A DNA stretch of 64,000 bases from Spinacia oleracea (lineage: Eukaryota > Streptophyta > Magnoliopsida > Caryophyllales > Amaranthaceae). Below the pieces are notes generated by a model. The model did no database searches, was not told the origin of the DNA, and was given only the letters and a program-made list of their open reading frames with translations. Position 1 is the stretch's first letter. Every line of letters starts with the position of its first letter. Positions 10,555 to 44,326 of this stretch are shown here, in pieces. The stretch spans positions 5,456,001-5,520,000 of the forward strand of contig NC_079490.1 in assembly GCF_020520425.1 (NCBI RefSeq), written 5' to 3'. Made by a program: the position numbers and the translations under genes.

Positions 10555-10634
10555 TGTTGTAATTAAAGGGAGTATGGCGGTGAAGGAATTCTTGTTTCGG
10601 CAACATATAACATATGATGAAGTTTACTCCTTAT

Positions 10635-10740: not shown

Positions 10741-10750
10741 TATGAAAATA

Positions 10751-21684: not shown

Positions 21685-21740
<56 letters not shown>

Positions 21741-22495: not shown

Positions 22496-23853
22496 ATGTC
22501 TGATACCTCTGATAGTGCCAACCCTAGTAGCCCTGGGTATATGAGCGATTCCTCCGAGCCATATTCTCCTTCTTCCCCTTCCTCTGTCTCTTTACCCTCT
22601 GATGAAGAGGCTAGGACAGTAGCAGAGAATAGAACTAAGTCTATGCATGATGTTATCCCTCGTTCTGAGCCTGCGGTGATATCTATCTCTAGTGGGTCTT
22701 CCTCTGGGGTGTGTCCCCCGTCGCTGGCAGGGCTACGCCTGTTGTGTCAGGGCCTACTCCTGCCTTTCGTCAACGTCTTAGAGAACTGCGCCATGAACAT
22801 TTGGCCAGTGCGGTTCGATTGAACCCTCCCCCTAATGCCCCTATTGGGCTAGACATCCAACCCCTGGCCGAAGTAGCTTGGTTGGACAGTTTTGATCAAC
22901 TAGACGGGCCTTTTATTGGGAGTACTGATGGGTCGTTGCATGTTTACCGCAGACGTTCTCCGATGGCAAGTGGTCCTAGCAGTGGTTGCGGCGACGCAGA
23001 GCATCATCCTGAGAATCCTATTCTCGAGGAGGTGGGGCTTCTCCGACCGTTTCCGTTGTATGTTGAGGAAGATCTACCCGTTGGCTCCACTGAGAGTTAT
23101 TTAGCTCCTGAAGTTTCATATGGTCCCTTAAACGCTGCGCCGGATGTGGATTGGCTCAAAGCAGCTCGTCAACATGATTATCCTGGTGTTGGAAGGGAGC
23201 TTTATGCTTTTCCCCCTGGATACGAGCTGGTTGTCCCCGCAGATGATGCTCGTATTACTGCTCCTCCCCCTGGTCATATTGGGTTGTATTCATATCATCT
23301 GGACTTTGGGCTGCGCTTTCCCTTGGATCCAACCTTGGCCAAATTTTTGAAGGCTTTTAATGTTTGCCTGGCGCAGCTTCATCCGTTTGCTATACGGACT
23401 TTGGTCTGCTACTTGTGGGTGGTGCGTTTCAAAGGCTTCCCTGAGACTCTCTCTTTGTGCAAACGACTGCACTGTATTCGAAGCAGTGATAATAAGGAAG
23501 GGAGCATTGGTTGGTTTACCACTTACACTGCTCGAGGCAAAATGACCTGCTTGGGCAACCCCACTGGGCAGAGGGATTGGAAGGGTCGATTCTTCTGGCT
23601 TCGAGTTCCCGCTGACTTTCCTTTGCCTCGTAGCTTTGTTCCTCCAAATGGCAAGATGGAGGGTGTGGAGGTTTTGGTTGGTCATAACTTGGAGGATGCT
23701 GCTTATGAGTGGTTCGACTCAGTGATTAAGCGCGACGCGAACGGAAAGGACGTCGGCCGTGCCCCTAAGAATTGGCTGCCTCAGTCGATGTATATTCTGC
23801 GGAATGATGTTCTTTCCGCTATGCACTTGTGCAACACTCATCCTCAGGGTACA

Positions 23854-23898
<45 letters not shown>

Positions 23899-24865
23899 AG
23901 CTTTTTTTTTTTATAGAACCCCTTGATATGAGCTCCCTGGGTTTAAATAACATTTTCTTATGTTTCCTTGTCCTGCTAGGTCGTCAACACCTTGATATGA
24001 GCTCCTTGGGTTTAGCTGCTGATGGAACCCCTCAGACTAACGAGCCAGCGGAAGACCCCGCCAATGCTTATCGTACCATAGCTGATGTTGTTGGCGGACG
24101 CAGAGCAAGCTCTCGACGAACTGTTCGAGGGGGGAGTTCTGCTGCTAGTCGTACTGCTAGAGGTGGGGGCTCTGTGGCTAGCCGCACTAGCAGGGGGGAG
24201 GCTCTGCAGGAATAACCGCTGGGGCGAGCACCTCAACGCCACGTTCTGCCCCTGTTTCTCGGGCTACCCCTTCTATATCTGCCTCTGCTCGGCGTGGTCA
24301 GACCACACGGGGAGGGGGTAATATTGCGGGCCAACGTCGGCCTCGTCCTGAGACGGAAAGCGTTTCTGTTGACGTTACGCGAACTGCTGCAGACCAATTG
24401 CAATCTGCTCATCCTGACCAAGTTGTGAATTCCTCTATCTCCGAGCAGGTGGAGATTGTGACCGAGGAGCAGGACGTCCCTTTTGTGCAGCGCCCAGGTA
24501 AGCGCATTTGCACTGGGGAGAGTTCTCGCTCGCAGGAGCAGGCCCAAGCTTCTGCCCCTGCTAACCAAAGCACCGCTTCTCTTCCTACTTCATCTGCTGC
24601 TCTTGCTGCTTACTTGGAGGAGCAACTGAGGTTGCCTGAGTCCTCTGTTCCTGCTTTTGTGAATATTAGGAACGGGGAATTTTTGGAGAAGGAGGCCATT
24701 GATGTTCGCCCTGCGGTGAACCCTGAGTTGGCTGCCTGTTTCTCCCCTGCGCCGATTAGCGATGACATCTTCGCTCCTCACTGGGATGTTAGAGCTAACG
24801 AGTCTTTGTATGCCAGCTTCCCAGAGAAAGGCGGAACGTTGGCATACCGGATGCTGAAGGGTTAA
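22496..24865 (+). pseudogene. Antisense gene of the left retrotransposon copy, exons 1-2, broken by two 1-nt deletions
   Basis: This corresponds to 33905-36259 in the right copy, with the same ATG (MSDTSDSANPSS) after a leader-intron acceptor TTTCTTTCAG. One G is missing from the run at 22706-22709, which truncates the product after about 108 residues. A second G is missing from the run at 24193-24198. An intron is predicted at 23849-23979, with a poly(T) tract about twice as long as in the right copy. The middle frame still encodes the PF04195-like region (PGHIGLYSYHLDFGLRFPLD and onward). A third break at the end is shared with the right copy. Confidence 0.75.
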
Positions 24866-24936
24866 CACTGCCAGCTGACCGCCCCCTTGAGCGTGTTTAC
24901 ACCCCTGGGGCTAATGCCTGCCAGAAAGTGCTAGAG

Positions 24937-25081
24937 GTAAGAAGCTTTTGAATCTATGCTGTTTTTATACTTAGCCATTTTTTGCATGTTTTTGTACTTA
25001 GCCATTTTTTGCATGTTTTTGTACTTAGCCATTTTTTGCATGTTTTTGTACTTAGCCATTTTTTTTTATTATTATTTGCAG
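24937..25081 (+). repeat. Intron with four 27-bp tandem units (left copy)
   Basis: The donor AG|GTAAGA at 24937 and acceptor TATTTGCAG ending at 25081 bound a 145-nt intron. Most of it is four copies of a unit containing GTACTTAGCCATTTTTTGCA. Confidence 0.7.
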
Positions 25082-25741
25082 GCTGGGGTTGCTGTGAAGG
25101 AGCTCTGTGACTTCTTTTTCTTCTATCAGAGGAAGCATGATCAACATCTTGCTCCTCTTGAAGAAAAGGACAGGCAGATCCGAGACCTGACCTTGGAAAA
25201 CGAAAGAGCATCCTCCTCCCTCACTATTGCCAATGCCAATGTTCAGACGATATCCGTCGAAAGAGACAACTTGGCTAGTGAGGTTGTAGCTCTGCGCCTA
25301 ACTGGGGAGAATTTAGCTAAAGCTCAGGCGGAGAGGAAACGCACTGAGGATTTGGCGGGGCAGCTAAGCTTTGTTGAGCAGAGGCATGCTGACGAGCTGG
25401 CAGAACTTCGCCTTTCTGTGCAGAAGGAGGTGGCTGCTGCTGTGCGAGAATTTTGTCGCTCTGACGCTCAGTATGCCCTTCTAACGCAGAGGTATGATGG
25501 CGGGTGGAAAGCGGCCTCTCTCATAATCAAGCACAAATATCCGCAGTTTGATTGGAGTTTAATCGAAGAGGACTGGCTTGCTGGCCTACACCTTACCATT
25601 CTTAAAGAACTGCGGGAGGCTGAAGCTGCTGAGGGTCATGCCGTAGAGCCTAGTGATGTGCCCGACTTCTGCGTCGAGAACATTCACCCTGGAGATTTGC
25701 CTTTCTCAGATGAAGATGATGTTGCAGGCAATGACGAATAA
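25082..25741 (+). CDS. Antisense gene C-terminal exon (coiled coil), left copy
   Basis: 219 codons plus stop, intact and identical in reading to 36475-37134. It begins AGVAVKELCDFFFFYQRK after the acceptor. A long amphipathic Glu/Leu/Arg-rich segment (LEEKDRQIRDLTLENERA to LAELRLSVQKEV) predicts a coiled coil. A conserved-looking AASLIIKHKYPQFDWSLIEE block and an acidic tail follow. It is the downstream exon of a gene whose first two exons are frameshifted here, so it is probably not translated in this copy. Confidence 0.6.
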   Translation, partial: AGVAVKELCDFFFFYQRKHDQHLAPLEEKDRQIRDLTLENERASSSLTIANANVQTISVERDNLASEVVALRLTGENLAKAQAERKRTEDLAGQLSFVEQRHADELAELRLSVQKEVAAAVREFCRSDAQYALLTQRYDGGWKAASLIIKHKYPQFDWSLIEEDWLAGLHLTILKELREAEAAEGHAVEPSDVPDFCVENIHPGDLPFSDEDDVAGNDE

Positions 25742-29800: not shown

Positions 29801-32368
29801 CTTCTCTGTCGAAAAATTTCTTTTCTTCTGTTTCACTGGCCTAACTTCTCTGCTGACATTCAGTCTATGGACCATGACACTGGGGTCAATCCCTGGCATT
29901 TCGTCCGCTGAGAAAGCAAATATGTCTGCGTGCTCTCTCAGCAGACCGATGAGGTTCACTCTGAGGGATAGGTCTACGTCTATGCCAATTCGAACTGTCC
30001 GGTCTGTCAACCCTTCCTCTAATTCTATCTCCTCAGTTTCGTCAGTTGGCGTGGGTTCCAACAGACCTTCCTCCCGATGCTCGAAGTTTTCCATGCTTAA
30101 CAACTTGTCTTTTTTGCGCTCTGCTCTCTTTCTTTTTCGAGATTGGGGAAGTTCTTCTTCTGCCAGTGGTGGGGGTCTGGGTGGTTGTTTTAGCGCAGTG
30201 TGGTAGCACTTCTTGGCCTGCTCCTGACTGCCTTTTACCTTGGCTGAGCGGCCATCATTTGTCGTATACATCATGGTAAGGTGATAAGTGGAGACTACAG
30301 CCCCTGCGTCATGGATGAATGGTCTGCCAAGAATGACGTTGTAGGCTGCGGGGACTTTCACAATCATGAAGTCTACCATGATATCCTTGATATCCTTCCC
30401 TTGGCCAATCTGCACCGGCAAACTGACTATCCCCTCTGGTATGACTGTGGCTCCTGTGAATCCGATTACTGGGTAATTGACTGATCTTACATATTTCTCA
30501 TCAATTTGCAACTCTTGGAAAGCAGGCCAGAACAGGATATTCGCAGAGCTACCTCCGTCTATCAGAATACGGTGGATTTTTCTGTTTGCTACATTCAGGG
30601 CTAGTACCATGGGGTCGTCATGGGGGTATATTATGCCTTTACAGTCCTCCTCTGTGAAAGTGCACTGCGGGATTTTTGGAGGGGCGGGCCACCTGCCAGA
30701 ATTATGGTAATTAACCTGGTGCTTGAATTCGCTCACACTGGCCTTGGCCCCGCTAACAGTGGTTCCCGCGTAAACTGGCCCTCCTGTTATGACCAAAATG
30801 TCGCCCATTCTCTTTTGGTCTGCTGGGTAGCTCTGCTTGGGTTCCGCCTTCTTATTGTCGGACCTATTATCATTATCTCTGTTCTCATAGGTCCTGCTAT
30901 ACGAGCTTTTTGCTTTGAATTGAGTCAAGTATGCCCTCCGGATCAGATCTTCGATATTATCCTTCAAATGAGTGCACTCTTCTGTGAGGTGGCCATGGTC
31001 TCTGTGAAAGTCACAGTACTTTTTTGGGTCCCTGTACTTGTTGTACATTTTGGGAGGTCTCTGCCACTTCTCGTCCTCTTTGCTGATGGAAAAAATTTGA
31101 GTTCTGGATGCCACTAAGGGGGTATACTCATTAAACTTCCCCCTTTTCTCAGTTTTAAACTCGTTACCTTTGCCTCTGCCTGGTCCCTGCCAGTCTCTTC
31201 TTGGCTGTGGGTTTTCTCTTCTGTCTGAGTACTCTTTTTTGTATGGCTCTTTCTTGCTCTGACTACCGTAATTGTTCTCACTTGCCACATATCGACGTGA
31301 GGTTGCTCTGCCAATTTCTTCACTCTTTATAAATTCATTTGCCTTTCCCAGCACCTCTGCGAGGGTTGTGAATGATTTTCTGCCCAGATAACTCTTGAAC
31401 TCTCCATCCCGCAGACCAGTCATCATGGCCAGGACTGCCACCTCTTGCTGCAACTTGGGTATATTCGACGCCTCCATATTGAATCTGGATATGTATTCCC
31501 TCAGAGATTCCTGAGGCCCCTGGATGACTGACATCAGCTCCCCTGTCATCCTTTCTCTGGCAATGTTTGCCACGTATTGGGTGCGAAACAAGATAGCTAG
31601 CTGCCGGAAAGATGTTATGGTGCCTTTGGGTATTTTACCAAACCAGCTCTGTGCCATCCCCTCTAGAGTGGAAGGAAAGACCTTACACCACATAGAGTCT
31701 GTGTTGGTATATAGCATCATATGTCCCCCAAAGGCAGAGAGGTGATTCGTTGGGTCTGTCTTTCCGGAGTATTTGCAGGTGGGCATTTTTATCTTCTCCA
31801 TTCTTTCAGAGAGTATTTCATCGCAGAAGGGAGAATTATCAGGTTTAACTATTGCTCGGATGGGATTGGGCATACCTGACACGGAGTGGTGTCTTTGACT
31901 GGGTGCTTGCTCAGTCCTTGCCCGGGGTTGAGCTCTGCTTGGTGTGATACTCTCTGCTTCATACTCTTGATTATCAGCCCCTTCCATGTCCTGCTGCAGA
32001 TTCCTCCTCCAAACATTCGGACTATGCTGGGGTCTGGGACGTTTTCTCCTCTGCTCAACCTCAACCTCTGGGGCTGTTCTCATGACCTGGGCTTGTGGGG
32101 TTGTTTGAGTAAGGAATGTCAGGACTTCTATTGCTGTGCGCATCTGGTCGGGTGAGAACTGTGCCCCCAATCGTGCTAGTGAAGCACTGGTTGGAATTGG
32201 GATACCCTGGCCCTGGCTAGGGGTTGCCATAGCTCTGGGTTGTGGTGTCTCTCTTGGCGGACCAAGACTCTGAGGCATGCCGAATAAGGGTACATTTGTG
32301 GTTCTCTGGTTGTTTTTTGAGGTGGGTGGTTCTATCTGCTGGATTATCGGTTCGCTTGACTCAGTCAT
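26843..32368 (-). CDS. Gag-Pol polyprotein of the left retrotransposon copy
   Basis: 1841 residues from the first ATG (32366-32368), 64 nt inside LTR B, with no internal stop. Domains, approximate residues: Gag 215-310 (MWCKVFPSTLEGMAQSWFGK); His/Cys region near 450 (YCDFHRDHGHLTEEC); aspartic protease DGGSSA near 603; reverse transcriptase with YVDD near 997; Ty3-type RNase H 1140-1255; a second, archaeal-type RNase H 1272-1400 (YVDGSA, NEAEYEA, KTDSQL, ENSQADALSKL); integrase zinc region 1490-1535; integrase core with WGMDILGP, FDHGTQFD and GQAEAANK; then WEGPY. There is no chromodomain. Gag and Pol are in one frame. About ten residues differ from the right copy. The copy appears coding-competent. 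Confidence 0.95.
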   Translation of the reverse strand: MTESSEPIIQQIEPPTSKNNQRTTNVPLFGMPQSLGPPRETPQPRAMATPSQGQGIPIPTSASLARLGAQFSPDQMRTAIEVLTFLTQTTPQAQVMRTAPEVEVEQRRKRPRPQHSPNVWRRNLQQDMEGADNQEYEAESITPSRAQPRARTEQAPSQRHHSVSGMPNPIRAIVKPDNSPFCDEILSERMEKIKMPTCKYSGKTDPTNHLSAFGGHMMLYTNTDSMWCKVFPSTLEGMAQSWFGKIPKGTITSFRQLAILFRTQYVANIARERMTGELMSVIQGPQESLREYISRFNMEASNIPKLQQEVAVLAMMTGLRDGEFKSYLGRKSFTTLAEVLGKANEFIKSEEIGRATSRRYVASENNYGSQSKKEPYKKEYSDRRENPQPRRDWQGPGRGKGNEFKTEKRGKFNEYTPLVASRTQIFSISKEDEKWQRPPKMYNKYRDPKKYCDFHRDHGHLTEECTHLKDNIEDLIRRAYLTQFKAKSSYSRTYENRDNDNRSDNKKAEPKQSYPADQKRMGDILVITGGPVYAGTTVSGAKASVSEFKHQVNYHNSGRWPAPPKIPQCTFTEEDCKGIIYPHDDPMVLALNVANRKIHRILIDGGSSANILFWPAFQELQIDEKYVRSVNYPVIGFTGATVIPEGIVSLPVQIGQGKDIKDIMVDFMIVKVPAAYNVILGRPFIHDAGAVVSTYHLTMMYTTNDGRSAKVKGSQEQAKKCYHTALKQPPRPPPLAEEELPQSRKRKRAERKKDKLLSMENFEHREEGLLEPTPTDETEEIELEEGLTDRTVRIGIDVDLSLRVNLIGLLREHADIFAFSADEMPGIDPSVMVHRLNVSREVRPVKQKKRNFSTEKNVAIQEEINKLLASKFIEECDYPEWLANVVMVKKANGQWRMCVDFTDLNKACPKDCYPLPRIDQLVDSTSGHALLSFMDAFSGYHQISLLESDRKKAAFITDAGVYNYKAMPFGLKNAGATYQKLVDKIFAQQKGRNVEVYVDDSIVKSKKEANHIADLRETFATLRQYGMKLNPKKCVFGVKSGKFLGFLVSERGIDANPEKVEAILNLPEPKNIRDVQRLTGKMAALTRFISKSADRSLPFFQVLKGNKTFKWEAEQKKAFAEVKNHLKSLPTIARPEVGDVLQLYISASKKTVAAALIVEKDKAQQPVYFVSHILNPAEQRYPLIEKMAFAIMIAARKLKPYFDAHKVQVLTNQPLEKSLRRLDTSGRLLKWAVELSEYDIEYRPRTAIKAQALADFIAEASYEEEEEPLGTWQIYVDGSAAVTGSGAGIIMTSPEGNVFEYAIKFKFKASNNEAEYEAAIAGIQMCKAADAKKIVLKTDSQLVASQYKGEYEAREPSMQRYLTLMKEAVAQLESFEIQLVPRAENSQADALSKLASSSLQDLERTVMVEVQEEKSIDKRPMVNAISTEPQWYDSIVSYKLGRGLLTTEPEQKKIKRNEHWFVIYQGRLYKKSFSLPLLRCVSTEESQRIIEEIHEGICGNHIGGRTLALKALRAGYYWPTMVSDSQSYVKKCDKCQKFAPVINQPSNDLQPIVNPIPFAQWGMDILGPFTAASGGRRYLIVAVDYFTKWIEAEPTKSITAKRMKDFIWRNIITRFGIPESLVFDHGTQFDCTPVKDYCAELRIKFAYASVCHPQSNGQAEAANKQILGALRKKIEDFKGAWADLIPEILWSNRTTEKEATGESPYKLAFGAEAVLPVEVGLPSFRVQYYDESTNEQLMRESLDLLPEVRLLAELRLTANKERMSRAYNKRVKHRPMHVGDLVLRRTAATGKGKAEGKFTANWEGPYQITREIAPGSYHLMTMDGKELKNSWNANMLKKYYV

Positions 32369-32411
32369 TGCGTGAGAGGGTAGGTCTTTTAGAAGCAAGG
32401 TCTGGGAATTG

Positions 32412-32431: not shown

Positions 32432-32934
32432 TGTTCCGGGTGTGGAACTGGGGGAGCCCTGCCTGATGATGTTGCCCTGCTTGGTGATGCTGCCCTGTCG
32501 GACAGAACGAACGTAAGCTAACCTCGGGGGTTTAACCGAGGAAACCCCCTCCGATGCCTAAGTCAGCAAATGAGATAATGTTCTAGAGAGAGAAAGTAGA
32601 GAGGGTTAAGAATTGTACTTTTTATTGAACGTGTCCGCAAATGAATGGGGACGGCAGTATTTATAGGCGTACTATTCAGTACTTTGGCCTATTCAGATGT
32701 TGCCGCGTGTACGCTAGTGATGTACTTGTTTGTTTGTCCTTTTGCTTAACGACGTATCTATGTTGTCGTCTAGCAGGTCGTTGCCCCGCAGACCTAAGGG
32801 TCTGCGCGGTTCTTGAGGACTTGTGGTACTTTCAATAGGTACTTCCTGCGGTTGCTTTGCTTGATCTGTCTTATCTGATGTCCGATGGTCTGCTGTGACA
32901 TGAATGATCTGCTAGGTTACTTCTACTCCGTACA
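32432..32934 (-). repeat. LTR B (shared central LTR)
   Basis: 503 bp, TG...CA. It serves as 3' LTR of the right copy and 5' LTR of the left copy. The TATA box is at 32658-32665 (plus-strand TATTTATA). Relative to LTR A it has three private differences: T for G in TACTTTTTATTG, one extra T in TTGTTTGTTTG, and A for G in GAGGACTTG. LTR C differs from it at those three positions plus one of its own. Confidence 0.93.
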
Positions 32935-33088: not shown

Positions 33089-33141
<53 letters not shown>

Positions 33142-33145
<4 letters not shown>

Positions 33146-33280
33146 CGTCGTGGTTTTACTGTAGTTAGCATTTGGAAGGAAAATAAACCGTCATGGTTTA
33201 TTGCGCCCCACGTGTCCTTCATCCAGGTAGGTGACTTGAAGGGTCTTCAAATCTTGGCCGTTTAATTCTCCTTTTAAATA
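33142..33280 (+). promoter_or_regulatory. Promoter of the antisense gene, right copy
   Basis: AAACCGTCRTGGTTT palindromes at 33142-33156 and 33185-33199, G-box CACGTG at 33209-33214, and TTTTAAATA at 33272-33280, all as in the left copy. A poly(T) run of about 50 nt precedes it (33090-33140). AACCG is a MYB-type core and CACGTG a bZIP/bHLH core. Their use here is inference. Confidence 0.6.
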
Positions 33281-33563
33281 CGGGTTTCAGTTACTTTCTT
33301 TTTCTCTCTCCTCTTTCTTACCTTCTTCATTTTCTTACTCTCCTCTAACTTTACTTTGCTTTGAACTTAATTTCGCCATTTCCCGAGCACTCTAACTCCA
33401 AGTTCTTTGCTTTCTTGTGTTTTTGTATTATTCCGGTGATTGCGCATCCGCTGGTGGTGGTGTTTTCTTCTGAAATTGTCGAGATTTTCTGGGTTCGTGT
33501 TTTTCTTCGAGGGTTTCTAGTCCGCCATTGTTGAACCTTTTTCTTCGCCCTTCTCTTTTCCAG

Positions 33564-33899
33564 GTAATTCTTTTGCTTTTTCTTTGCTGCATTCTTTGGT
33601 TTTGCATGTACATTCAACTGTTTTAGTAATTTTTGTGGGTTTTTTGTGGTATGTGTTCTTCGAATAAAATGTGGGAGTGTTTGTGTTTTTTGGCTTCGCC
33701 ATTTCTGCATTTCTTGGAGTTTTTTGTCTTCTTCTTCCTTTTCTCTTCTGTTTTTTTTTTATTTATTTTTTTTTATTTTTATTTTTACATTACATGTATA
33801 TTTTTGTGTCGTTTTGCTCTTTTTTCTCTGTCGTTTTGCCTTGACTTTTCTCCTTCTACCCTTTGTTTATTCTTCTTTCTTTCTTCTTTTTTCTTTCAG
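33564..33899 (+). other. Leader intron of the antisense gene, right copy
   Basis: The exon end TTTTCCAG is followed by GTAATT at 33564. A long pyrimidine tract with TTTCTTTCAG ends at 33899, six nucleotides before the ATG. A first intron in the 5' UTR is common in strongly expressed plant genes. Confidence 0.6.
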
Positions 33900-33904
33900 T
33901 CAAC

Positions 33905-36259
33905 ATGTCTGATACCTCTGATAGTGCCAACCCTAGTAGCCCTGGGTATATGAGCGATTCCTCCGAGCCATATTCTCCTTCTTCCCCTTCCTCTGTCTCT
34001 TTACCCTCTGATGAAGAGGCTAGGACAGTAGCAGAGAATAGAACTAAGTCTATGCATGATGTTATCCCTCGTTCTGAGCCTGCGGTGATATCTATCTCCA
34101 GTGGGTCTTCCTCTGGGGGTGTGTCCCCCGTCGCTGGCAGGGCTACGCCTGTTGTGTCAGGGCCTACTCCTGCCTTTCGTCAATGTCTTAGAGAACTGCG
34201 CCATGAACATTTGGCCAGTGCGGTTCGATTGAACCCTCCCCCTAATGCCCCTATTGGGCTAGACATCCAACCCCTGGCCGAAGTAGCTTGGTTGGACAGT
34301 TTTGATCAACTAGACGGGCCTTTTATTGGGAGTACTGATGGGTCGTTGCATGTTTACCGCAGACGTTCTCCGATGGCAAGTGGTCCTAGCAGTGGTTGCG
34401 GCGACGCAGAGCATCATCCTGAGAATCCTATTCTCGAGGAGGTGGGGCTTCTCCGACCGTTTCCGTTGTATGTTGAGGAAGATCTACCCGTTGGCTCCAC
34501 TGAGAGTTATTTAGCTCCTGAAGTTTCATATGGTCCCTTAAACGCTGCGCCGGATGTGGATTGGCTCAAAGCAGCTCGTCAACATGATTATCCTGGTGTT
34601 GGAAGGGAGCTTTATGCTTTTCCCCCTGGATACGAGCTGGTTGTCCCCGCAGATGATGCTCGTATTACTGCTCCTCCCCCTGGTCATATTGGGTTGTATT
34701 CATATCATCTGGACTTTGGGCTGCGCTTTCCCTTGGATCCAACCTTGGCCAAATTTTTGAAGGCTTTTAATGTTTGCCTGGCGCAGCTTCATCCGTTTGC
34801 TATACGGACTTTGGTCTGCTACTTGTGGGTGGTGCGTTTCAAAGGCTTCCCTGAGACTCTCTCTTTGTGCAAACGACTGCACTGTATTCGAAGCAGTGAT
34901 AATAAGGAAGGGAGCATTGGTTGGTTTACCACTTACACTGCTCGAGGCAAAATGACCTGCTTGGGCAACCCCACTGGGCAGAGGGATTGGAAGGGTCGAT
35001 TCTTCTGGCTTCGAGTTCCCGCTGACTTTCCTTTGCCTCGTAGCTTTGTTCCTCCAAATGGCAAGATGGAGGGTGTGGAGGTTTTGGTTGGTCATAACTT
35101 GGAGGATGCTGCTTATGAGTGGTTCGACTCAGTGATTAAGCGCGACGCGAACGGAAAGGACGTCGGCCGTGCCCCTAAGAATTGGCTGCCTCAGTCGATG
35201 TATATTCTGCGGAATGATGTTCTTTCCGCTATGCACTTGTGCAACACTCATCCTCAGGGTACATTTTTCTCTTTTTTTTTTTTTTTTTACTTAGCTTTTT
35301 TTTTTATAGAACCCCTTGATATGAGCTCCCTGGGTTTAAATAACATTTTCTTATGTTTCCTTGTCCTGCTAGGTCGTCAACACCTTGATATGAGCTCCTT
35401 GGGTTTAGCTGCTGATGGAACCCCTCAGACTAACGAGCCAGCGGAAGACCCCGCCAATGCTTATCGTACCATAGCTGATGTTGTTGGCGGACGCAGAGCA
35501 AGCTCTCGACGAACTGTTCGAGGGGGGAGTTCTGCTGCTAGTCGTACTGCTAGAGATGGGGGCTCTGTGGCTAGCCGCACTAGCAGGGGGGGAGGCTCTG
35601 CAGGAATAACCGCTGGGGCGAGCACCTCAACGCCACGTTCTGCCCCTGTTTCTCGGGCTACCCCTTCTATATCTGCCTCTGCTCGGCGTGGTCAGACCAC
35701 ACGGGGAGGGGGTAATATTGCGGGCCAACGTCGGCCTCGTCCTGAGACGGAAAGCGTTTCTGTTGACGTTACGCGAACTGCTGCAGACCAATTGCAATCT
35801 GCTCATCCTGACCAAGTTGTGAATTCCTCTATCTCCGAGCAGGTGGAGATTGTGACCGAGGAGCAGGACGTCCCTTTTGTGCAGCGCCCAGGTAAGCGCA
35901 TTTGCACTGGGGAGAGTTCTCGCTCGCAGGAGCAGGCCCAAGCTTCTGCCCCTGCTAACCAAAGCACCGCTTCTCTTCCTACTTCATCTGCTGCTCTTGC
36001 TGCTTACTTGGAGGAGCAACTGAGGTTGCCTGAGTCCTCTGTTCCTGCTTTTGTGAATATTAGGAACGGGGAATTTTTGGAGAAGGAGGCCATTGATGTT
36101 CGCCCTGCGGTGAACCCTGAGTTGGCTGCCTGTTTCTCCCCTGCGCCGATTAGCGATGACATCTTCGCTCCTCACTGGGATGTTAGAGCTAACGAGTCTT
36201 TGTATGCCAGCTTCCCAGAGAAAGGCGGAACGTTGGCATACCGGATGCTGAAGGGTTAA
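33905..36259 (+). CDS. Antisense gene of the right retrotransposon copy, exons 1-2 (PF04195-like)
   Basis: The start is the ATG at 33905, not the earlier TTG-initiated extension. Residues 1-65 are Ser/Pro-rich and acidic. Residues about 220-380 resemble the plant 'putative gypsy type transposon' domain (PF04195): GHIGLYSYHLDFGLRFPLDP, FAIRTLVCYLWVVRFKGFPE, DWKGRFFWLRVP. An intron with donor G|GTACAT at 35259 and acceptor CTGCTAG ending at 35372 is 114 nt, so reading through it also stays open. Exon 2 encodes an Arg/Gly/Ser-rich region, then a TAA at 36257-36259. The downstream coiled-coil exon is one frame away, so a 1-nt loss near the stop is likely. Function is unknown. Comparable antisense ORFs are known in Tat-lineage elements such as Grande and Retand. 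Confidence 0.75.
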   Translation: MSDTSDSANPSSPGYMSDSSEPYSPSSPSSVSLPSDEEARTVAENRTKSMHDVIPRSEPAVISISSGSSSGGVSPVAGRATPVVSGPTPAFRQCLRELRHEHLASAVRLNPPPNAPIGLDIQPLAEVAWLDSFDQLDGPFIGSTDGSLHVYRRRSPMASGPSSGCGDAEHHPENPILEEVGLLRPFPLYVEEDLPVGSTESYLAPEVSYGPLNAAPDVDWLKAARQHDYPGVGRELYAFPPGYELVVPADDARITAPPPGHIGLYSYHLDFGLRFPLDPTLAKFLKAFNVCLAQLHPFAIRTLVCYLWVVRFKGFPETLSLCKRLHCIRSSDNKEGSIGWFTTYTARGKMTCLGNPTGQRDWKGRFFWLRVPADFPLPRSFVPPNGKMEGVEVLVGHNLEDAAYEWFDSVIKRDANGKDVGRAPKNWLPQSMYILRNDVLSAMHLCNTHPQGTFFSFFFFFYLAFFFIEPLDMSSLGLNNIFLCFLVLLGRQHLDMSSLGLAADGTPQTNEPAEDPANAYRTIADVVGGRRASSRRTVRGGSSAASRTARDGGSVASRTSRGGGSAGITAGASTSTPRSAPVSRATPSISASARRGQTTRGGGNIAGQRRPRPETESVSVDVTRTAADQLQSAHPDQVVNSSISEQVEIVTEEQDVPFVQRPGKRICTGESSRSQEQAQASAPANQSTASLPTSSAALAAYLEEQLRLPESSVPAFVNIRNGEFLEKEAIDVRPAVNPELAACFSPAPISDDIFAPHWDVRANESLYASFPEKGGTLAYRMLKG

Positions 36260-36330
36260 CACTGCCAGCTGACCGCCCCCTTGAGCGTGTTTACACCCCT
36301 GGGGCTAATGCCTGCCAGAAAGTGCTAGAG

Positions 36331-36474
36331 GTAAGAAGCTTTTGAATCTATGCTGTTTTTATACTTAGCCATTTTTTGCATGTTTTTGTACTTAGCCATT
36401 TTTTGCATGTTTTTGTACTTAGCCATTTTTTGCATGTTTTTGTACTTAGCCATTTTTTTTATTATTATTTGCAG
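36331..36474 (+). repeat. Intron with 27-bp tandem units (right copy)
   Basis: Donor AG|GTAAGA, acceptor TATTTGCAG. Inside are four units with GTACTTAGCCATTTTTTGCA, of the same number and phase as in the left copy. Confidence 0.7.
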
Positions 36475-37134
36475 GCTGGGGTTGCTGTGAAGGAGCTCTG
36501 TGACTTCTTTTTCTTCTATCAGAGGAAGCATGATCAACATCTTGCTCCTCTTGAAGAAAAGGACAGGCAGATCCGAGACCTGACCTTGGAAAACGAAAGA
36601 GCATCCTCCTCCCTCACTATTGCCAATGCCAATGTTCAGACGATATCCGTCGAAAGAGACAACTTGGCTAGTGAGGTTGTAGCTCTGCGCCTAACTGGGG
36701 AGAATTTAGCTAAAGCTCAGGCGGAGAGGAAACGCACTGAGGATTTGGCGGGGCAGCTAAGCTTTGTTGAGCAGAGGCATGCTGACGAGCTGGCAGAACT
36801 TCGCCTTTCTGTGCAGAAGGAGGTGGCTGCTGCTGTGCGAGAATTTTGTCGCTCTGACGCTCAGTATGCCCTTCTAACGCAGAGGTATGATGGCGGGTGG
36901 AAAGCGGCCTCTCTCATAATCAAGCACAAATATCCGCAGTTTGATTGGAGTTTAATCGAAGAGGACTGGCTTGCTGGCCTACACCTTACCATTCTTAAAG
37001 AACTGCGGGAGGCTGAAGCTGCTGAGGGTCATGCCGTAGAGCCTAGTGATGTGCCCGACTTCTGCGTCGAGAACATTCACCCTGGAGATTTGCCTTTCTC
37101 AGATGAAGATGATGTTGCAGGCAATGACGAATAA
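36475..37134 (+). CDS. Antisense gene C-terminal exon (coiled coil), right copy
   Basis: 219 codons plus stop. It starts AGVAVKELCDFF directly after the acceptor. A heptad-like region of about 90 residues (QIRDLTLENERASSSLTIAN to RLSVQKEVAAAVREF) predicts a parallel coiled coil. It is followed by YDGGWKAASLIIKHKYPQFD and an acidic C-terminus (FSDEDDVAGNDE). The identical left-copy exon suggests a recent common origin. The joining frame runs through the 70 nt between 36260 and 36330 in a frame other than that of exon 2. Confidence 0.65.
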   Translation, partial: AGVAVKELCDFFFFYQRKHDQHLAPLEEKDRQIRDLTLENERASSSLTIANANVQTISVERDNLASEVVALRLTGENLAKAQAERKRTEDLAGQLSFVEQRHADELAELRLSVQKEVAAAVREFCRSDAQYALLTQRYDGGWKAASLIIKHKYPQFDWSLIEEDWLAGLHLTILKELREAEAAEGHAVEPSDVPDFCVENIHPGDLPFSDEDDVAGNDE

Positions 37135-37520: not shown

Positions 37521-38009
37521 TTCTGAATTGTCTTGGCTTTTGCCAAGGCAAACTTAGGGACTGCTCTGTGACATTTGTGCGGTATTCTAGCTAGCCTTTT
37601 GAGCTACCTTCAACCTTGAATTGCTTTGGCTTTGGTCAAGGCAAAAACTCGGAAATTGTTTTGCGTATTTTAAATAGGCTTTTTGGGCTGCTTCCAATTT
37701 TGAATTGCCTTGGTTTTAGCCAAGGCAAAACTCAGAAATTGCTCTGCGATATTCTAACTAGCCTTTTGGGCTGTTTCCAATTTTGAATTGTCTTGGTTCT
37801 AGCCAAGGCAAAACTCGGAAATTGCTCTGCGATATTCTAACTAGCCTTTTGGGCTGTTTCCAATTTTGAATTGTCTTGGTTCTAGCCAAGGCAAAACTCA
37901 GAAATTGCTCTGCGATATTCTAACTAGCCTTTTGGGCTGTTTCCGATTTTGAATTGTCTTGGTTCTAGTCAAGGCAAAACTCAGAAATTGCTCTGCGATA
38001 TTCTAACTT
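37521..38009. repeat. 83-bp tandem array with stem-loops, right copy
   Basis: Same six-unit structure as 26128-26616, with each unit retaining the CTTGG/CCAAG hairpin. Unit number and order appear unchanged between copies, so the array has not been altered since the copies separated. Confidence 0.85.
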
Positions 38010-38235: not shown

Positions 38236-41200
38236 CTAAACATAGTATTTTTTGAGCATGTTGGCGTTCCAACTATTCTTTAGCTCTTTTCCATCCATTG
38301 TCATAAGATGATATGAGCCAGGGGCTATCTCCCTTGTGATCTGGTATGGTCCTTCCCAATTTGCAGTGAATTTCCCCTCTGCCTTGCCCTTTCCTGTAGC
38401 TGCTGTTCGTCTAAGTACCAGGTCTCCCACATGCATAGGCCTGTGCTTGACTCTTTTATTGTAAGCTCTGCTCATTCTCTCTTTGTTTGCTGTGAGCCTC
38501 AGCTCTGCTAGCAACCTTACCTCTGGCAGAAGGTCTAACGATTCCCTCATGAGTTGTTCATTAGTGCTTTCATCATAGTACTGCACTCTGAAACTGGGCA
38601 GGCCAACCTCCACCGGTAATACTGCTTCTGCTCCAAAGGCTAACTTGTAGGGACTTTCTCCTGTCGCCTCCTTCTCAGTTGTTCTATTGGACCACAAAAT
38701 TTCTGGTATGAGGTCTGCCCATGCACCCTTAAAATCCTCTATTTTCTTTCGCAGAGCTCCAAGGATTTGTTTGTTCGCCGCCTCGGCCTGTCCGTTGCTC
38801 TGTGGGTGGCATACTGATGCGTAAGCAAATTTGATTCTTAGCTCTGCGCAATAATCTTTCACCGGTGTGCAATCGAATTGTGTCCCGTGATCAAAGACCA
38901 GACTTTCTGGGATGCCAAATCTTGTGATGATGTTTCTCCAGATGAAGTCTTTCATTCGTTTCGCTGTTATGCTTTTTGTGGGCTCTGCTTCTATCCATTT
39001 GGTGAAATAATCCACCGCCACGATCAAGTATCTTCTTCCTCCACTCGCAGCTGTAAACGGACCTAGGATGTCCATTCCCCACTGAGAGAATGGTATGGGA
39101 TTGACGATTGGTTGCAGATCATTTGAGGGCTGATTGATTACTGGAGCGAATTTCTGGCATTTGTCGCATTTCTTCACGTATGATTGCGAGTCACTCACCA
39201 TAGTTGGCCAATAGTACCCTGCTCTGAGGGCTTTCAAAGCTAGTGTTCTACCCCCAATATGATTACCGCATATGCCCTCATGAATTTCTTCAATGATTCT
39301 CTGTGATTCCTCTGTTGAGACGCATCTCAGCAGGGGTAGGGAGAAGGATTTTTTGTACAATCTGCCCTGGTAGATCACAAACCAGTGTTCATTTCGCTTT
39401 ATCTTCTTCTGTTCTGGCTCTGTTGTAGGGAGACCCCTGCCAAGCTTGTACGATACTATACTGTCGTACCACTGAGGCTCTGTGCTGATGGCGTTTACCA
39501 TGGGCCTCTTATCGATACTCTTCTCTTCCTGTACTTCCACCATCACTGTTCTTTCCAGGTCTTGCAGCGAAGAGCTTGCTAATTTTGAGAGAGCATCTGC
39601 TTGGCTATTCTCTGCCCTGGGGACCAACTGGATCTCGAAGCTTTCCAACTGGGCTACTGCTTCTTTCATCAGTGCCAGATACCTCTGCATGGACGGTTCT
39701 CGAGCTTCATACTCGCCTTTATACTGACTGGCCACTAACTGGGAATCTGTTTTCAACACGATTTTCTTAGCATCCGCTGCCTTGCACATTTGAATGCCTG
39801 CGATCGCTGCTTCGTACTCTGCTTCATTATTTGAGGCTTTGAATTTGAACTTTATGGCATATTCAAAGACATTACCTTCTGGTGAGGTCATTATAATGCC
39901 TGCTCCTGACCCTGTTACCGCGGCTGAGCCATCTACATATATCTGCCAGGTCCCCAGAGGTTCTTCTTCTTCTTCGTACGATGCCTCAGCTATGAAGTCT
40001 GCTAATGCCTGTGCCTTTATGGCCGTTCTTGGCCTGTATTCAATATCGTACTCTGAGAGTTCTACCGCCCATTTCAGCAATCTGCCTGAGGTATCCAGCC
40101 TTCGCAATGATTTCTCCAAAGGCTGATTTGTTAATACTTGTACCTTGTGAGCGTCGAAATATGGTTTCAGCTTCCTGGCAGCTATCATAATTGCGAAGGC
40201 CATTTTTTCGATCAGTGGGTACCTTTGCTCTGCGGGGTTGAGAATGTGACTGACGAAATATACTGGTTGTTGGGCTTTGTCCTTTTCCACTATTAAGGCT
40301 GCTGCTACAGTCTTTTTGGAGGCCGAGATGTACAACTGCAAAACATCTCCTACTTCTGGTCTGGCTATTGTTGGGAGGCTCTTTAGGTGATTCTTTACCT
40401 CTGCGAATGCCTTTTTTTGCTCTGCTTCCCACTTGAATGTTTTGTTGCCTTTCAGTACCTGAAAAAATGGGAGGGATCTATCTGCAGATTTACTGATAAA
40501 ACGAGTGAGTGCTGCCATCTTTCCCGTTAATCTCTGCACATCTCGTATGTTCTTTGGCTCTGGCAAGTTGAGTATGGCCTCCACCTTCTCGGGGTTGGCA
40601 TCTATTCCCCTTTCACTTACCAGAAATCCCAGGAACTTTCCTGACTTAACACCGAACACACATTTCTTTGGGTTTAGTTTCATGCCGTACTGTCTCAACG
40701 TAGCAAATGTTTCTCGCAGGTCTGCGATGTGATTGGCCTCTTTTTTGCTCTTGACTATGGAATCATCCACATATACTTCCACATTCCGGCCCTTTTGCTG
40801 TGCGAATATCTTATCTACAAGCTTTTGGTAGGTTGCACCCGCATTTTTCAGGCCGAATGGCATAGCTTTGTAGTTATAAACTCCAGCGTCTGTGATGAAA
40901 GCAGCTTTCTTACGATCTGATTCGAGTAAACTGATCTGATGGTAGCCGGAAAATGCATCCATGAAACTCAAGAGAGCGTGCCCACTGGTGGAATCAACCA
41001 GCTGGTCTATTCTGGGCAATGGGTAACAGTCCTTCGGACAGGCCTTGTTTAGGTCCGTGAAGTCTACACACATCCTCCATTGACCGTTTGCTTTCTTTAC
41101 CATCACAACGTTAGCCAGCCATTCTGGGTAATCACACTCTTCTATGAACTTGGCTGCTAGCAATTTGTTGATTTCTTCTTGGATGGCCACATTCTTCTCT

Positions 41201-43761
41201 GTCGAAAAATTTCTTTTCTTCTGTTTCACTGGCCTAACTTCTCTGCTGACATTCAGTCTATGGACCATGACACTGGGGTCAATCCCTGGCATTTCGTCCG
41301 CTGAGAAAGCAAATATGTCTGCGTGCTCTCTCAGCAGACCGATGAGGTTCACTCTGAGGGATAGGTCTACGTCTATGCCAATTCGAACTGTCCGGTCTGT
41401 CAACCCTTCCTCTAATTCTATCTCCTCAGTTTCGTCAGTTGGCGTGGGTTCCAACAGACCTTCCTCCCGATGCTCGAAGTTTTCCATGCTTAACAACTTG
41501 TCTTTTTTGCGCTCTGCTCTCTTTCTTTTTCGAGATTGGGGAAGTTCTTCTTCTGCCAGTGGTGGGGGTCTGGGTGGTTGTTTTAGCGCAGTGTGGTAGC
41601 ACTTCTTGGCCTGCTCCTGACTGCCTTTTACCTTGGCTGAGCGGCCATCATTTGTCGTATACATCATGGTAAGGTGATAAGTGGAGACTACAGCCCCTGC
41701 GTCATGGATGAATGGTCTGCCAAGAATGACGTTGTAGGCTGCGGGGACTTTCACAATCATGAAGTCTACCATGATATCCTTGATATCCTTCCCTTGGCCA
41801 ATCTGCACCGGCAAACTGACTATCCCCTCTGGTATGACTGTGGCTCCTGTGAATCCGATTACTGGGTAATTGACTAATCTTACATATTTCTCATCAATTT
41901 GCAACTCTTGGAAAGCAGGCCAGAACAGGATATTCGCAGAGCTACCTCCGTCTATCAGAATACGGTGGATTTTTCTGTTTGCTACATTCAGGGCTAGTAC
42001 CATGGGGTCGTCATGGGGGTATATTATGCCTTTACAGTCATCCTCTGTGAAAGTGCACTGCGGGATTTTTGGAGGGGCGGGCCACCTGCCAGAATTATGG
42101 TAATTAACCTGGTGCTTGAATTCGCTCACACTGGCCTTGGCCCCGCTAACAGTGGTTCCCGCGTAAACTGGCCCTCCTGTTATGACCAAAATGTCGCCCA
42201 TTCTCTTTTGGTCTGCTGGGTAGCTCTGCTTGGGTTCCGCCTTCTTATTGTCGGACCTATTATCATTATCTCTGTTCTCATAGGTCCTGCCATACGAGCT
42301 TTTTGCTTTGAATTGAGTCAAGTATCCCCTCCGGATCAGATCTTCGATATTATCCTTCAAATGAGTGCACTCTTCTGTGAGGTGGCCATGGTCTCTGTGA
42401 AAGTCACAGTACTTTTTTGGGTCCCTGTACTTGTTGTACATTTTGGGAGGTCTCTGCCACTTCTCGTCCTCTTTGCTGATAGCAAAAATTTGAGTTCTGG
42501 ATGCCACTAAGGGGGTATACTCATTAAACTTCCCCCTTTTCTCAGTTTTAAACTCGTTACCTTTGCCTCTGCCTGGTCCCTGCCAGTCTCTTCTTGGCTG
42601 TGGGTTTTCTCTTCTGTCTGAGTACTCTTTTTTGTATGGCTCTTTCTTGCTCTGACTACCGTAATTGTTCTCACTTGCCACATATCGACGTGAGGTTGCT
42701 CTGCCAATTTCTTCACTCTTTATAAATTCATTTGCCTTTCCCAGCACCTCTGCGAGGGTTGTGAATGATTTTCTGCCCGGATAACTCTTGAACTCTCCAT
42801 CCCGCAGACCAGTCATCATGGCCAGGACTGCCACCTCTTGCTGCAACTTGGGTATATTCGACGCCTCCATATTGAATCTGGATATGTATTCCCTCAGAGA
42901 TTCCTGAGGCCCCTGGATGACTGACATCAGCTCCCCTGTCATCCTTTCTCTGGCAATGTTTGCCACGTATTGGGTGCGAAACAAGATAGCTAGCTGCCGG
43001 AAAGATGTTATGGTGCCTTTGGGTATTTTACCAAACCAGCTCTGTGCCATCCCCTCTAGAGTGGAAGGAAAGACCTTACACCACATAGAGTCTGTGTTGG
43101 TATATAGCATCATATGTCCCCCAAAGGCAGAGAGGTGATTCGTTGGGTCTGTCTTTCCGGAGTATTTGCAGGTGGGCATTTTTATCTTCTCCATTCTTTC
43201 AGAGAGTATTTCATCGCAGAAGGGAGAATTATCAGGTTTAACTATTGCTCGGATGGGATTGGGCATACCTGACACGGGGTGGTGTCTTTGACTGGGTGCT
43301 TGCTCAGTCCTTGCCCGGGGTTGAGCTCTGCTTGGTGTGATACTCTCTGCTTCATACTCTTGATTATCAGCCCCTTCCATGTCCTGCTGCAGATTCCTCC
43401 TCCAAACATTCGGACTATGCTGGGGTCTGGGACGTTTTCTCCTCTGCTCAACCTCAACCTCTGGGGCTGTTCTCATGACCTGGGCTTGTGGGGTTGTTTG
43501 AGTAAGGAATGTCAGGACTTCTATTGCTGTGCGCATCTGGTCGGGTGAGAACTGTGCCCCCAATCGTGCTAGTGAAGCACTGGTTGGAATTGGGATACCC
43601 TGGCCCTGGCTAGGGGTTGCCATAGCTCTGGGTTGTGGTGTCTCTCTTGGCGGACCAAGACTCTGAGGCATGCCGAATAAGGGTACATTTGTGGTTCTCT
43701 GGTTGTTTTTTGAGGTGGGTGGTTCTATCTGCTGGATTATCGGTTCGCTTGACTCAGTCAT
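38236..43761 (-). CDS. Gag-Pol polyprotein of the right retrotransposon copy
   Basis: 1841 residues, ATG at 43759-43761, uninterrupted. Domain order is as in the left copy: Gag, protease (DGGSSA), reverse transcriptase (YVDD), Ty3-type RNase H, archaeal-type RNase H, zinc-binding and catalytic integrase with the WEGPY module. Differences from the left copy are scattered. Examples are HHPVSG for HHSVSG, KSYPGRK for KSYLGRK, IFAISK for IFSISK, FTEDDC for FTEEDC, LLAAKF for LLASKF and PFSQWG for PFAQWG. None hits a catalytic residue. The LTR C promoter would drive it, with genomic RNA ending in LTR B or LTR A. Confidence 0.95.
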   Translation of the reverse strand: MTESSEPIIQQIEPPTSKNNQRTTNVPLFGMPQSLGPPRETPQPRAMATPSQGQGIPIPTSASLARLGAQFSPDQMRTAIEVLTFLTQTTPQAQVMRTAPEVEVEQRRKRPRPQHSPNVWRRNLQQDMEGADNQEYEAESITPSRAQPRARTEQAPSQRHHPVSGMPNPIRAIVKPDNSPFCDEILSERMEKIKMPTCKYSGKTDPTNHLSAFGGHMMLYTNTDSMWCKVFPSTLEGMAQSWFGKIPKGTITSFRQLAILFRTQYVANIARERMTGELMSVIQGPQESLREYISRFNMEASNIPKLQQEVAVLAMMTGLRDGEFKSYPGRKSFTTLAEVLGKANEFIKSEEIGRATSRRYVASENNYGSQSKKEPYKKEYSDRRENPQPRRDWQGPGRGKGNEFKTEKRGKFNEYTPLVASRTQIFAISKEDEKWQRPPKMYNKYRDPKKYCDFHRDHGHLTEECTHLKDNIEDLIRRGYLTQFKAKSSYGRTYENRDNDNRSDNKKAEPKQSYPADQKRMGDILVITGGPVYAGTTVSGAKASVSEFKHQVNYHNSGRWPAPPKIPQCTFTEDDCKGIIYPHDDPMVLALNVANRKIHRILIDGGSSANILFWPAFQELQIDEKYVRLVNYPVIGFTGATVIPEGIVSLPVQIGQGKDIKDIMVDFMIVKVPAAYNVILGRPFIHDAGAVVSTYHLTMMYTTNDGRSAKVKGSQEQAKKCYHTALKQPPRPPPLAEEELPQSRKRKRAERKKDKLLSMENFEHREEGLLEPTPTDETEEIELEEGLTDRTVRIGIDVDLSLRVNLIGLLREHADIFAFSADEMPGIDPSVMVHRLNVSREVRPVKQKKRNFSTEKNVAIQEEINKLLAAKFIEECDYPEWLANVVMVKKANGQWRMCVDFTDLNKACPKDCYPLPRIDQLVDSTSGHALLSFMDAFSGYHQISLLESDRKKAAFITDAGVYNYKAMPFGLKNAGATYQKLVDKIFAQQKGRNVEVYVDDSIVKSKKEANHIADLRETFATLRQYGMKLNPKKCVFGVKSGKFLGFLVSERGIDANPEKVEAILNLPEPKNIRDVQRLTGKMAALTRFISKSADRSLPFFQVLKGNKTFKWEAEQKKAFAEVKNHLKSLPTIARPEVGDVLQLYISASKKTVAAALIVEKDKAQQPVYFVSHILNPAEQRYPLIEKMAFAIMIAARKLKPYFDAHKVQVLTNQPLEKSLRRLDTSGRLLKWAVELSEYDIEYRPRTAIKAQALADFIAEASYEEEEEPLGTWQIYVDGSAAVTGSGAGIIMTSPEGNVFEYAIKFKFKASNNEAEYEAAIAGIQMCKAADAKKIVLKTDSQLVASQYKGEYEAREPSMQRYLALMKEAVAQLESFEIQLVPRAENSQADALSKLASSSLQDLERTVMVEVQEEKSIDKRPMVNAISTEPQWYDSIVSYKLGRGLPTTEPEQKKIKRNEHWFVIYQGRLYKKSFSLPLLRCVSTEESQRIIEEIHEGICGNHIGGRTLALKALRAGYYWPTMVSDSQSYVKKCDKCQKFAPVINQPSNDLQPIVNPIPFSQWGMDILGPFTAASGGRRYLIVAVDYFTKWIEAEPTKSITAKRMKDFIWRNIITRFGIPESLVFDHGTQFDCTPVKDYCAELRIKFAYASVCHPQSNGQAEAANKQILGALRKKIEDFKGAWADLIPEILWSNRTTEKEATGESPYKLAFGAEAVLPVEVGLPSFRVQYYDESTNEQLMRESLDLLPEVRLLAELRLTANKERMSRAYNKRVKHRPMHVGDLVLRRTAATGKGKAEGKFTANWEGPYQITREIAPGSYHLMTMDGKELKNSWNANMLKKYYV

Positions 43762-43804
43762 TGCGTGAGAGGGTAGGTCTTTTAGAAGCAAGGTCTGGGA
43801 TTAC

Positions 43805-43824: not shown

Positions 43825-44326
43825 TGTTCCGGGTGTGGAACTGGGGGAGCCCTGCCTGATGATGTTGCCCTGCTTGGTGATGCTGCCCTGTCGGACAGAA
43901 CGAACGTAAGCTAACCTCGGGGGTTTAACCGAGGAAACCCCCTCCGATGCCTAAGTCAGCAAATGAGATAATGTTCTAGAGAGAGAAAGTAGAGAGGGTT
44001 AAGAATTGTACTTTGTATTGAACGTGTCCGCAAATGAATGGGGTCGGCAGTATTTATAGGCGTACTATTCAGTACTTTGGCCTATTCAGATGTTGCCGCG
44101 TGTACGCTAGTGATGTACTTGTTGTTTGTCCTTTTGCTTAACGACGTATCTATGTTGTCGTCTAGCAGGTCGTTGCCCCGCAGACCTAAGGGTCTGCGCG
44201 GTTCTTGAGGGCTTGTGGTACTTTCAATAGGTACTTCCTGCGGTTGCTTTGCTTGATCTGTCTTATCTGATGTCCGATGGTCTGCTGTGACATGAATGAT
44301 CTGCTAGGTTACTTCTACTCCGTACA
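43825..44326 (-). repeat. LTR C (5' LTR of the right copy)
   Basis: 502 bp, TG...CA, TATA box at 44051-44058. Its only visible difference from LTR A is GGGTCGG for GGGACGG. Immediately right is ACAGTCATAGGGG, which continues into the inverted copy of 9495-9803. Confidence 0.93.

What the first reader, a model, noticed from the sequence alone, without database searches (positions are those of the whole stretch)
33142..37134. A spliced gene on the opposite strand inside the retrotransposon, with its own promoter-like region
Between pol and the 3' LTR each copy carries, on the strand opposite to Gag-Pol, two AAACCGTCRTGGTTT palindromes, a G-box, a TATA-like box, a leader intron, an ATG and at least three coding exons. 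These give a PF04195-like domain and a coiled-coil C-terminus. Antisense ORFs are known from Tat-lineage elements. The paired palindromes with a G-box and the exon structure are the part I have not seen described. Antisense transcription over the genomic RNA could feed small-RNA silencing, or the protein could regulate the element.
Basis: partly seen in the sequence, partly recalled or inferred. Interest (0 to 1): 0.75.

Follow-up and report, generated by a model that had tools for sequence, protein, structure and literature searches.

The report
Spliced antisense gene in a retrotransposon
A spinach-type jumping gene carries, on its opposite strand, an accessory gene with its own promoter-like region and three introns whose protein has been preserved by selection in related copies, although both copies in this window are broken.

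Summary
The window lies in an 894-Mb genome (spinach, by inference). It holds a tandem Tat-clade Ty3/gypsy element: three LTRs and two internal regions, gag-pol on the minus strand. Each pol-3'LTR region carries a plus-strand gene with a paired-palindrome/G-box/TATA-like region, a leader intron, an ATG and three coding exons.

I compared 40 genomic copies, 36 covering the whole gene. Each splice site is GT or AG in 35 or 36 of 36. Introns are full of indels, exons are not. Codon position 3 changes about 3 to 24 times faster than positions 1 and 2 in each exon's predicted frame. Median dN/dS is 0.12, against 0.05 for integrase. Nine of 36 copies are open from ATG to stop (992 or 994 codons) when spliced as modelled. 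So this is a selected, protein-coding, intron-bearing antisense gene.

Both window copies are frame-broken: a break in exon 3 cuts off the last exon. PF04195 similarity is weak and sub-threshold. Antisense Transposase_28 genes are already reported as typical of Retand elements, and an own promoter is reported for Grande. I did not find the introns or paired palindromes in the papers I could search.

The parts
33142..33156 (.). palindrome 1, AAACC-N5-GGTTT, next to a 52-nt T run
   Evidence: at least one site in 38 of 40 rows, both in 28 of 40
33185..33199 (.). palindrome 2; perfect arms of 8 bp around the 5-nt centre in the window copy
33209..33214 (.). G-box CACGTG
   Evidence: 39 of 40 rows
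33273..33280 (+). TATA-like TTTAAATA, followed by an initiator-like TCAGTT at 33287
   Evidence: TTTAAATA in 37 of 40 rows; TCAGT in 36 of 40
33291..33563 (+). presumed leader exon (5' end inferred, not mapped)
33564..33899 (+). leader intron 1
   Evidence: GT 36 of 36, AG 36 of 36; 12.7 gap runs per kb per row
33900..35258 (+). exon 2, ATG at 33905; TRP28-like stretch about 34706-34891
35259..35372 (+). intron 2 (phase 1)
   Evidence: GT 35 of 36, AG 36 of 36; 51.5 gap runs per kb per row; retaining it brings a stop or frame change in 16 of 22 copies with open exon 2
35373..36330 (+). exon 3
   Evidence: codon-position pattern
36193..36256 (+). interval within which the reading frame changes in the right-hand copy; the left-hand copy has the same sequence here
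   Evidence: stops by frame; identity of the copies here; no phase-consistent bridging intron with both sites at 2 bits or more among the donors and acceptors scanned; no slippery heptamer at 36150-36259
36331..36474 (+). intron 3 (phase 0), with a 27-bp tandem repeat
   Evidence: GT 36 of 36, AG 35 of 36
36475..37134 (+). exon 4, 219 codons and stop, presumed C-terminus
22496..25741 (+). copy 1 of the gene (ATG to exon-4 stop), frame lost after 108 codons
32432..32934 (-). shared middle LTR; the others are 21029-21530 and 43825-44326
38236..43791 (-). gag-pol ORF of the right-hand unit (1851 aa as listed); left-hand unit 26843-32398
   Evidence: domains from pieces of the left-hand unit
37578..38008 (.). 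83-bp tandem array between the antisense gene and pol

Best explanation
This is the antisense accessory gene of a Retand-like Tat retrotransposon. RNA polymerase II would start at about 33290 from an internal promoter outside the LTR (paired palindromes, G-box, TATA-like box). The transcript would be spliced at three introns and, in open copies, give a protein of about 994 residues with a weak Transposase_28-like stretch. The introns can persist through retrotransposition because the genomic RNA that is reverse-transcribed is the other strand and carries only the reverse complement of these splice sites. The protein most likely acts in trans in the nucleus as a regulator of the element's expression or integration. 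Shown here: exon-intron structure by comparison, conservation, purifying selection on the protein, and the frame break in both window copies. Inferred: transcription, the splicing itself, nuclear location and the regulatory role.
For: In 19 divergent copies, change rates at codon positions 1/2/3 are 0.061/0.035/0.191 (exon 2), 0.071/0.062/0.231 (exon 3), 0.061/0.011/0.263 (late exon 3, 75 nt) and 0.041/0.045/0.206 (exon 4), each in its predicted frame. Median dN/dS is 0.116 in 20 pairs, against 0.047 for an integrase segment of the same copies. Gap runs per kb per row are 12.7, 51.5 and 18.5 in the introns and 0.22, 1.32 and 1.66 in exons 2-4. 9 of 36 copies are open from ATG to stop when spliced; 0 of 36 when introns 2 and 3 are kept, 1 when only intron 2 is kept, 0 when only intron 3 is kept. 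Splice sites and promoter-like elements are conserved. Published precedent: antisense Transposase_28 ORFs in 97% of Retand clusters (PMC11963269, text parts 1-3 of 5 read), and Grande gene23 with its own promoter and a nuclear protein (PMC7264820, passages).
Against: No RNA data were available. Both window copies cannot make the full protein, and 27 of 36 copies in all are not open. The PF04195 match is below its cut-off in every piece where it appeared, with none reported for one of six copies tested or for the 784-aa piece. Over all 39 promoter rows the palindromes change little less than their surroundings, 0.050 against 0.060. The two window copies alone would not show selection: the non-coding 3' flank also has no substitutions between them.
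Confidence: 0.85

Rival explanations
1. The antisense RNA, not a protein, is the functional product: it pairs with genomic RNA and feeds siRNA silencing or blocks reverse transcription.
For: The whole gene lies antisense to the gag-pol strand; this role has been proposed for antisense aORFs (PMC7264820, passage), and antisense transcripts are said to reduce Ty1 retrotransposition (PMC12786077, passage).
Against: Codon-position and dN/dS patterns in three exons point to a translated protein. An RNA-only role does not explain them.
Confidence: 0.08
2. The constraint reflects template switching or gene conversion among copies rather than selection on the gene.
For: Divergence is mosaic between regions, for example L026-L029 are 4-10% from the window copy in intron 1 but about 20% in exon 3.
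Against: Conversion should lower all sites alike; it does not spare codon positions 1 and 2 while position 3 moves about 3 to 24 times faster.
Confidence: 0.03
3. The paired palindromes are sites for a host transcription factor that drives the antisense promoter, unrelated to the element's protein.
For: They lie beside a G-box and TATA-like box, about 90-150 bp upstream of the presumed start.
Against: I matched them to no known motif, but searched no motif library; only recalled motifs were considered. No test here separates this from binding by the element's own protein.
Confidence: 0.5
4. Only relics: the gene was once active but the family is now dead, and the window copies are simply decayed.
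For: 27 of 36 copies, both window copies among them, are not open.
Against: 9 of 36 copies are open, and dN/dS is 0.17 even for the close pair W2-L022, on 37 synonymous and 20 nonsynonymous differences.
Confidence: 0.2

Closest known systems
Retand-lineage antisense TRP28 (Transposase_28) ORFs, Vicient 2025 (PMC11963269)
   Same: Same place (pol-3'LTR) and same orientation. LTR about 502 (published range 315-1,194), internal about 10,890 (7,380-12,869) and pol-3'LTR about 5,300 (2,933-6,566) lie in the published ranges. A tandem array sits next to pol. Spinacia oleracea is among the species listed.
   Different: That survey predicted ORFs with ORF Finder; its text has no 'intron', and 'splic', 'exon' and 'palindrom' only in the reference list. 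Here three introns are shown by comparison. The TRP28 match is sub-threshold. The listed spinach cluster has a 425-bp LTR, not about 502.
Maize Grande gene23 (Gomez-Orte 2013, not held; seen only through PMC7264820 passages)
   Same: Antisense accessory gene between pol and the 3' LTR, transcribed from its own promoter; nuclear protein.
   Different: No sequence was available here to test homology, and whether gene23 has introns could not be read.
HTLV-1 HBZ and other antisense retroviral genes (named in PMC11963269)
   Same: An antisense gene in an LTR element; regulatory roles described.
   Different: The HTLV antisense promoter is described as lying inside the 3' LTR (PMC7264820); here the promoter-like region is outside the LTR. 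No homology is claimed.
Ogre elements (Tat clade)
   Same: Same RT-RH-aRH-INT order.
   Different: Ogre has an intron in the sense strand between its two gag-pol ORFs (PMC6317226, passage); here gag-pol is one ORF and the introns are in the antisense gene.

Membership tests
Tat clade of Ty3/gypsy (Ogre/Retand type) | two RNase H domains, the additional one between RH and integrase (PMC6317226) | tested here: met
   RT_RNaseH PF17917/PF17919, then RVT_3 PF13456, then Integrase_H2C2/rve, all above cut-off, in pieces of the left-hand unit
Retand lineage | reverse-transcriptase phylogeny | not tested
   no plant RT reference set in the tools; hence 'Retand-like'
Retand lineage | LTR, internal and pol-3'LTR sizes in the published ranges | tested here: met
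   LTR 502-503, internal about 10,890, pol-3'LTR about 5,300, against ranges in PMC11963269
Retand lineage | antisense ORF of 600 bp or more in pol-3'LTR | tested here: met
   33863-36259, 798 codons as listed
Transposase_28 (PF04195) | Pfam gathering score 26.2 bits | tested here: not met
   best 14.4 bits in the window, 13.1-14.5 in four other copies, none reported in a fifth
Transposase_28 (PF04195) | six conserved positions G21 P25 L34 P46 N47 F55 (PMC11963269) | tested here: inconclusive
   4 of 6 at exact spacing where the HMM aligns, but 2776 of 20000 shuffles reach 4 or more somewhere
Own-promoter antisense gene (Grande gene23 type) | mapped antisense transcript from an internal promoter | not testable with these tools
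   no RNA data; only conserved promoter-like sequence

The most novel reading that the evidence does not exclude
The paired palindromes, about four helical turns apart, are an operator bound by the antisense gene's own protein, giving the element an autoregulated, intron-bearing regulator that works independently of the LTR, like a phage repressor circuit. In the two most divergent promoters (L033, L040) the five-base arms are unchanged in 40 of 40 positions while 61 of 236 surrounding positions changed, and all four sites there are more palindromic than in the window (AAACCG-NNN-CGGTTT).
Probability: 0.2. Interest if true: 0.75.

Novelty: new variant of a known kind. Interest (0 to 1): 0.55.

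Why it matters
Antisense accessory genes of Retand elements are widespread in flowering plants, and the 2025 survey that described them used an ORF finder and left their function open (PMC11963269). Showing that one is a multi-exon gene with a constrained protein (dN/dS about 0.12) and a conserved paired-palindrome promoter-like region means that ORF-only surveys may truncate such proteins. It gives exact splice junctions to look for in RNA-seq and a concrete candidate DNA target for the protein. It also illustrates why an intron can survive in a retroelement: it lies on the strand that is not reverse-transcribed.

Tried and rejected
Selection from the two window copies alone: 8 substitutions in leader plus intron 1 against 3 in coding sequence looked like constraint (Fisher 7.7e-5), but the non-coding 3' flank also has none, so I dropped it and used other copies.

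A bridging intron from a strong conserved donor at 35892 (rank 1 of 209) to 36268 would be phase-consistent, but its acceptor scores -1.75 bits (rank 67) and exon 3 shows coding constraint through 36190; rejected as the normal form. Programmed frameshifting: no slippery heptamer at 36150-36259. RNA hairpin role of the palindromes: folding not clearly better than shuffles on either strand, z -0.81 and -1.28. Relatives in viral and bacterial/archaeal collections: none confirmed. An identical 5-bp target-site duplication was not seen by eye at the element's ends.

Not obtained: structure prediction; genome-wide counts of the palindrome pair and of PF04195 (genome search busy).
Full report
What is there. 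The window contains one composite Ty3/gypsy element at about 21029-44326. It has three LTRs of 502-503 nt (21029-21530, 32432-32934, 43825-44326) separated by two nearly identical internal regions, with gag-pol on the minus strand. Pieces of the left-hand gag-pol show gag, RT, RNase H, a second RNase H (RVT_3) and integrase, in that order. This is the Ogre/Retand arrangement of the Tat clade as given in PMC6317226 (passages). [quoted passage not shown] copy 1 is in the left-hand unit.

The genome. The genome search placed the window in an unnamed assembly of 894,210,420 bases in 242 contigs. The contigs met number six, of about 115-189 Mb. The spinach line Monoe-Viroflay has an assembly of about 894.3 Mb in six pseudomolecules (PMC8668906, passages). 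Spinach is therefore my inference, not a label from the tools.

The promoter-like region. Two AAACC-N5-GGTTT palindromes lie 43 nt apart; the only 4 matches in the window are those of the two copies (0.14 expected). I compared 40 rows: 38 fetched copies and the two window copies, which are the 40 places scored out of 76 first-look candidates, so the family is larger. Of the 40, 28 have both palindromes, 10 have one and 2 have none. Spacing is 43 in 24 of the 28. The G-box is in 39 of 40 and TTTAAATA in 37 of 40. In the two most divergent promoters (L033, L040), which I picked for divergence after seeing the alignment, the arms show 0 changes in 40 cells against 61 of 236 in the rest, gaps counted (Fisher 4e-5). 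Against this, over 39 rows (L034, which lacks the region, left out) the palindromes change at 0.050 and the rest at 0.060; several rows have lost or scrambled site 1, which abuts the T run. The palindrome footprint is suggestive; the G-box is the steadier element (0.005).

The gene model. Exons 2 and 3 read in one frame (codon starts at positions 2 mod 3) and exon 4 in another (1 mod 3). Introns are T-rich, 0.53-0.60 T. I dropped 4 of 40 rows (L016, L018, L034, L045) because they do not cover the whole gene, leaving 36. GT/AG counts are: donor 1 36, acceptor 1 36, donor 2 35, acceptor 2 36, donor 3 36, acceptor 3 35, each of 36. The ATG is kept in 39 of 40. Nine of 36 copies are open from ATG to stop, eight at 994 codons and one at 992, when spliced. 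None is open with introns 2 and 3 kept, one with intron 2 alone kept, none with intron 3 alone kept. Among 22 copies with open exon 2, retaining intron 2 brings a stop or a frame change in 16.

Selection. In 19 rows more than 5% divergent from the window copy in exon 2, codon position 3 changes about 3 to 24 times faster than positions 1 and 2, in each exon's predicted frame. Against the window copy, dN/dS of the antisense gene is 0.10-0.17 (median 0.116) in 20 pairs, and that of an integrase segment of the same copies is 0.03-0.09 (median 0.047) (20 of the 38 fetched copies). The antisense protein is thus under strong constraint, looser than integrase. The pairs share one partner and are not independent.

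The window copies are broken. In the right-hand copy the frame of exons 2-3 ends at a stop at 36257 while the rest of exon 3 and exon 4 are in another frame; the change of frame lies in 36193-36256, and the left-hand copy has no difference there. The predicted product is 746 residues, with the stop 71 nt before the last junction, a position that often triggers nonsense-mediated decay (established knowledge, not tested). 26 of 36 copies have exon 3 in a different register from both window copies. Copy 1 also loses the frame after 108 codons, with length differences in G runs. Assembly error in homopolymers cannot be excluded.

The protein. PF04195 aligns at the same place (profile 6-68 of 69) in the window and four other copies with 13.1-14.5 bits, below the cut-off of 26.2; one further copy gave no match. 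The six positions that PMC11963269 calls conserved are met at 4 of 6, which 2776 of 20000 shuffles also reach. I therefore call it Transposase_28-like by position and weak similarity, not a confirmed member. The C-terminal exon gives only weak sub-threshold matches, several to coil-rich Pfam families, and a crude heptad test is negative. No structure could be predicted because the machine was busy.

How it most likely works. Shown: a conserved, intron-bearing, protein-coding antisense gene. Inferred: it is transcribed by RNA polymerase II from the internal promoter-like region. Its introns survive because the packaged genomic RNA is the opposite strand, on which these are not splice sites, so reverse transcription copies them intact. 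The protein acts on the element, most plausibly as a nuclear regulator.

What is known. PMC11963269 (text parts 1-3 of 5 read, plus a word search) reports antisense TRP28 ORFs in 97% of recent Retand clusters, with a spinach cluster in its table, using ORF Finder. The words intron and G-box are absent from it, and splic, exon and palindrom occur only in its references. PMC7264820 (passages) reports the own promoter and nuclear protein of Grande gene23, and asks that antisense and spliced transcripts be looked for. Passages of PMC11728184, PMC12786077 and PMC3352295 added nothing on introns in such genes. Searches listed no paper that I recognised, from titles and abstract beginnings, as describing introns or paired palindromes in such a gene; several of these lists were capped well below the number of matches. 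The primary gene23 paper was not held, so prior description of introns there cannot be excluded.

Verdict. It belongs to a known kind of gene, with an exon-intron and promoter-like architecture that I did not find described.

Noticed in passing
window 21029-44326: The element is a tandem LTR-internal-LTR-internal-LTR composite with a shared middle LTR, and no identical 5-bp target-site duplication seen by eye at its ends; probably unequal recombination or a concatemer.
   Followed up: partly
L026-L029, L030-L033, L035-L046: Divergence from the window copy is mosaic along the antisense gene (for example 4-10% in intron 1 but about 20% in exon 3 in L026-L029), as expected from template switching or recombination between subfamilies.
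   Followed up: no
window 35889-35897: The best-scoring donor in the whole gene (CAGGTAAGC) lies inside exon 3 and is kept as CAGGTAAGC or CAGGTAAAC in 36 of 40 rows; a possible alternative donor, or simply constrained coding sequence.
   Followed up: partly
window 35310-35345 and 35380-35415: Intron 2 contains a near-copy of the start of exon 3 (seen by eye), with a second strong acceptor at 35309.
   Followed up: no
window 33090-33141 and about 21686-21740: A T run of 52 nt or more (A run in the genomic RNA sense) sits between the antisense promoter-like region and a duplicated segment next to the 3' LTR.
   Followed up: no
window 16912-20451: A 1179-aa minus-strand ORF that looks like a LINE-type reverse transcriptase lies just left of the element (identity judged by eye, not searched).
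   Followed up: no
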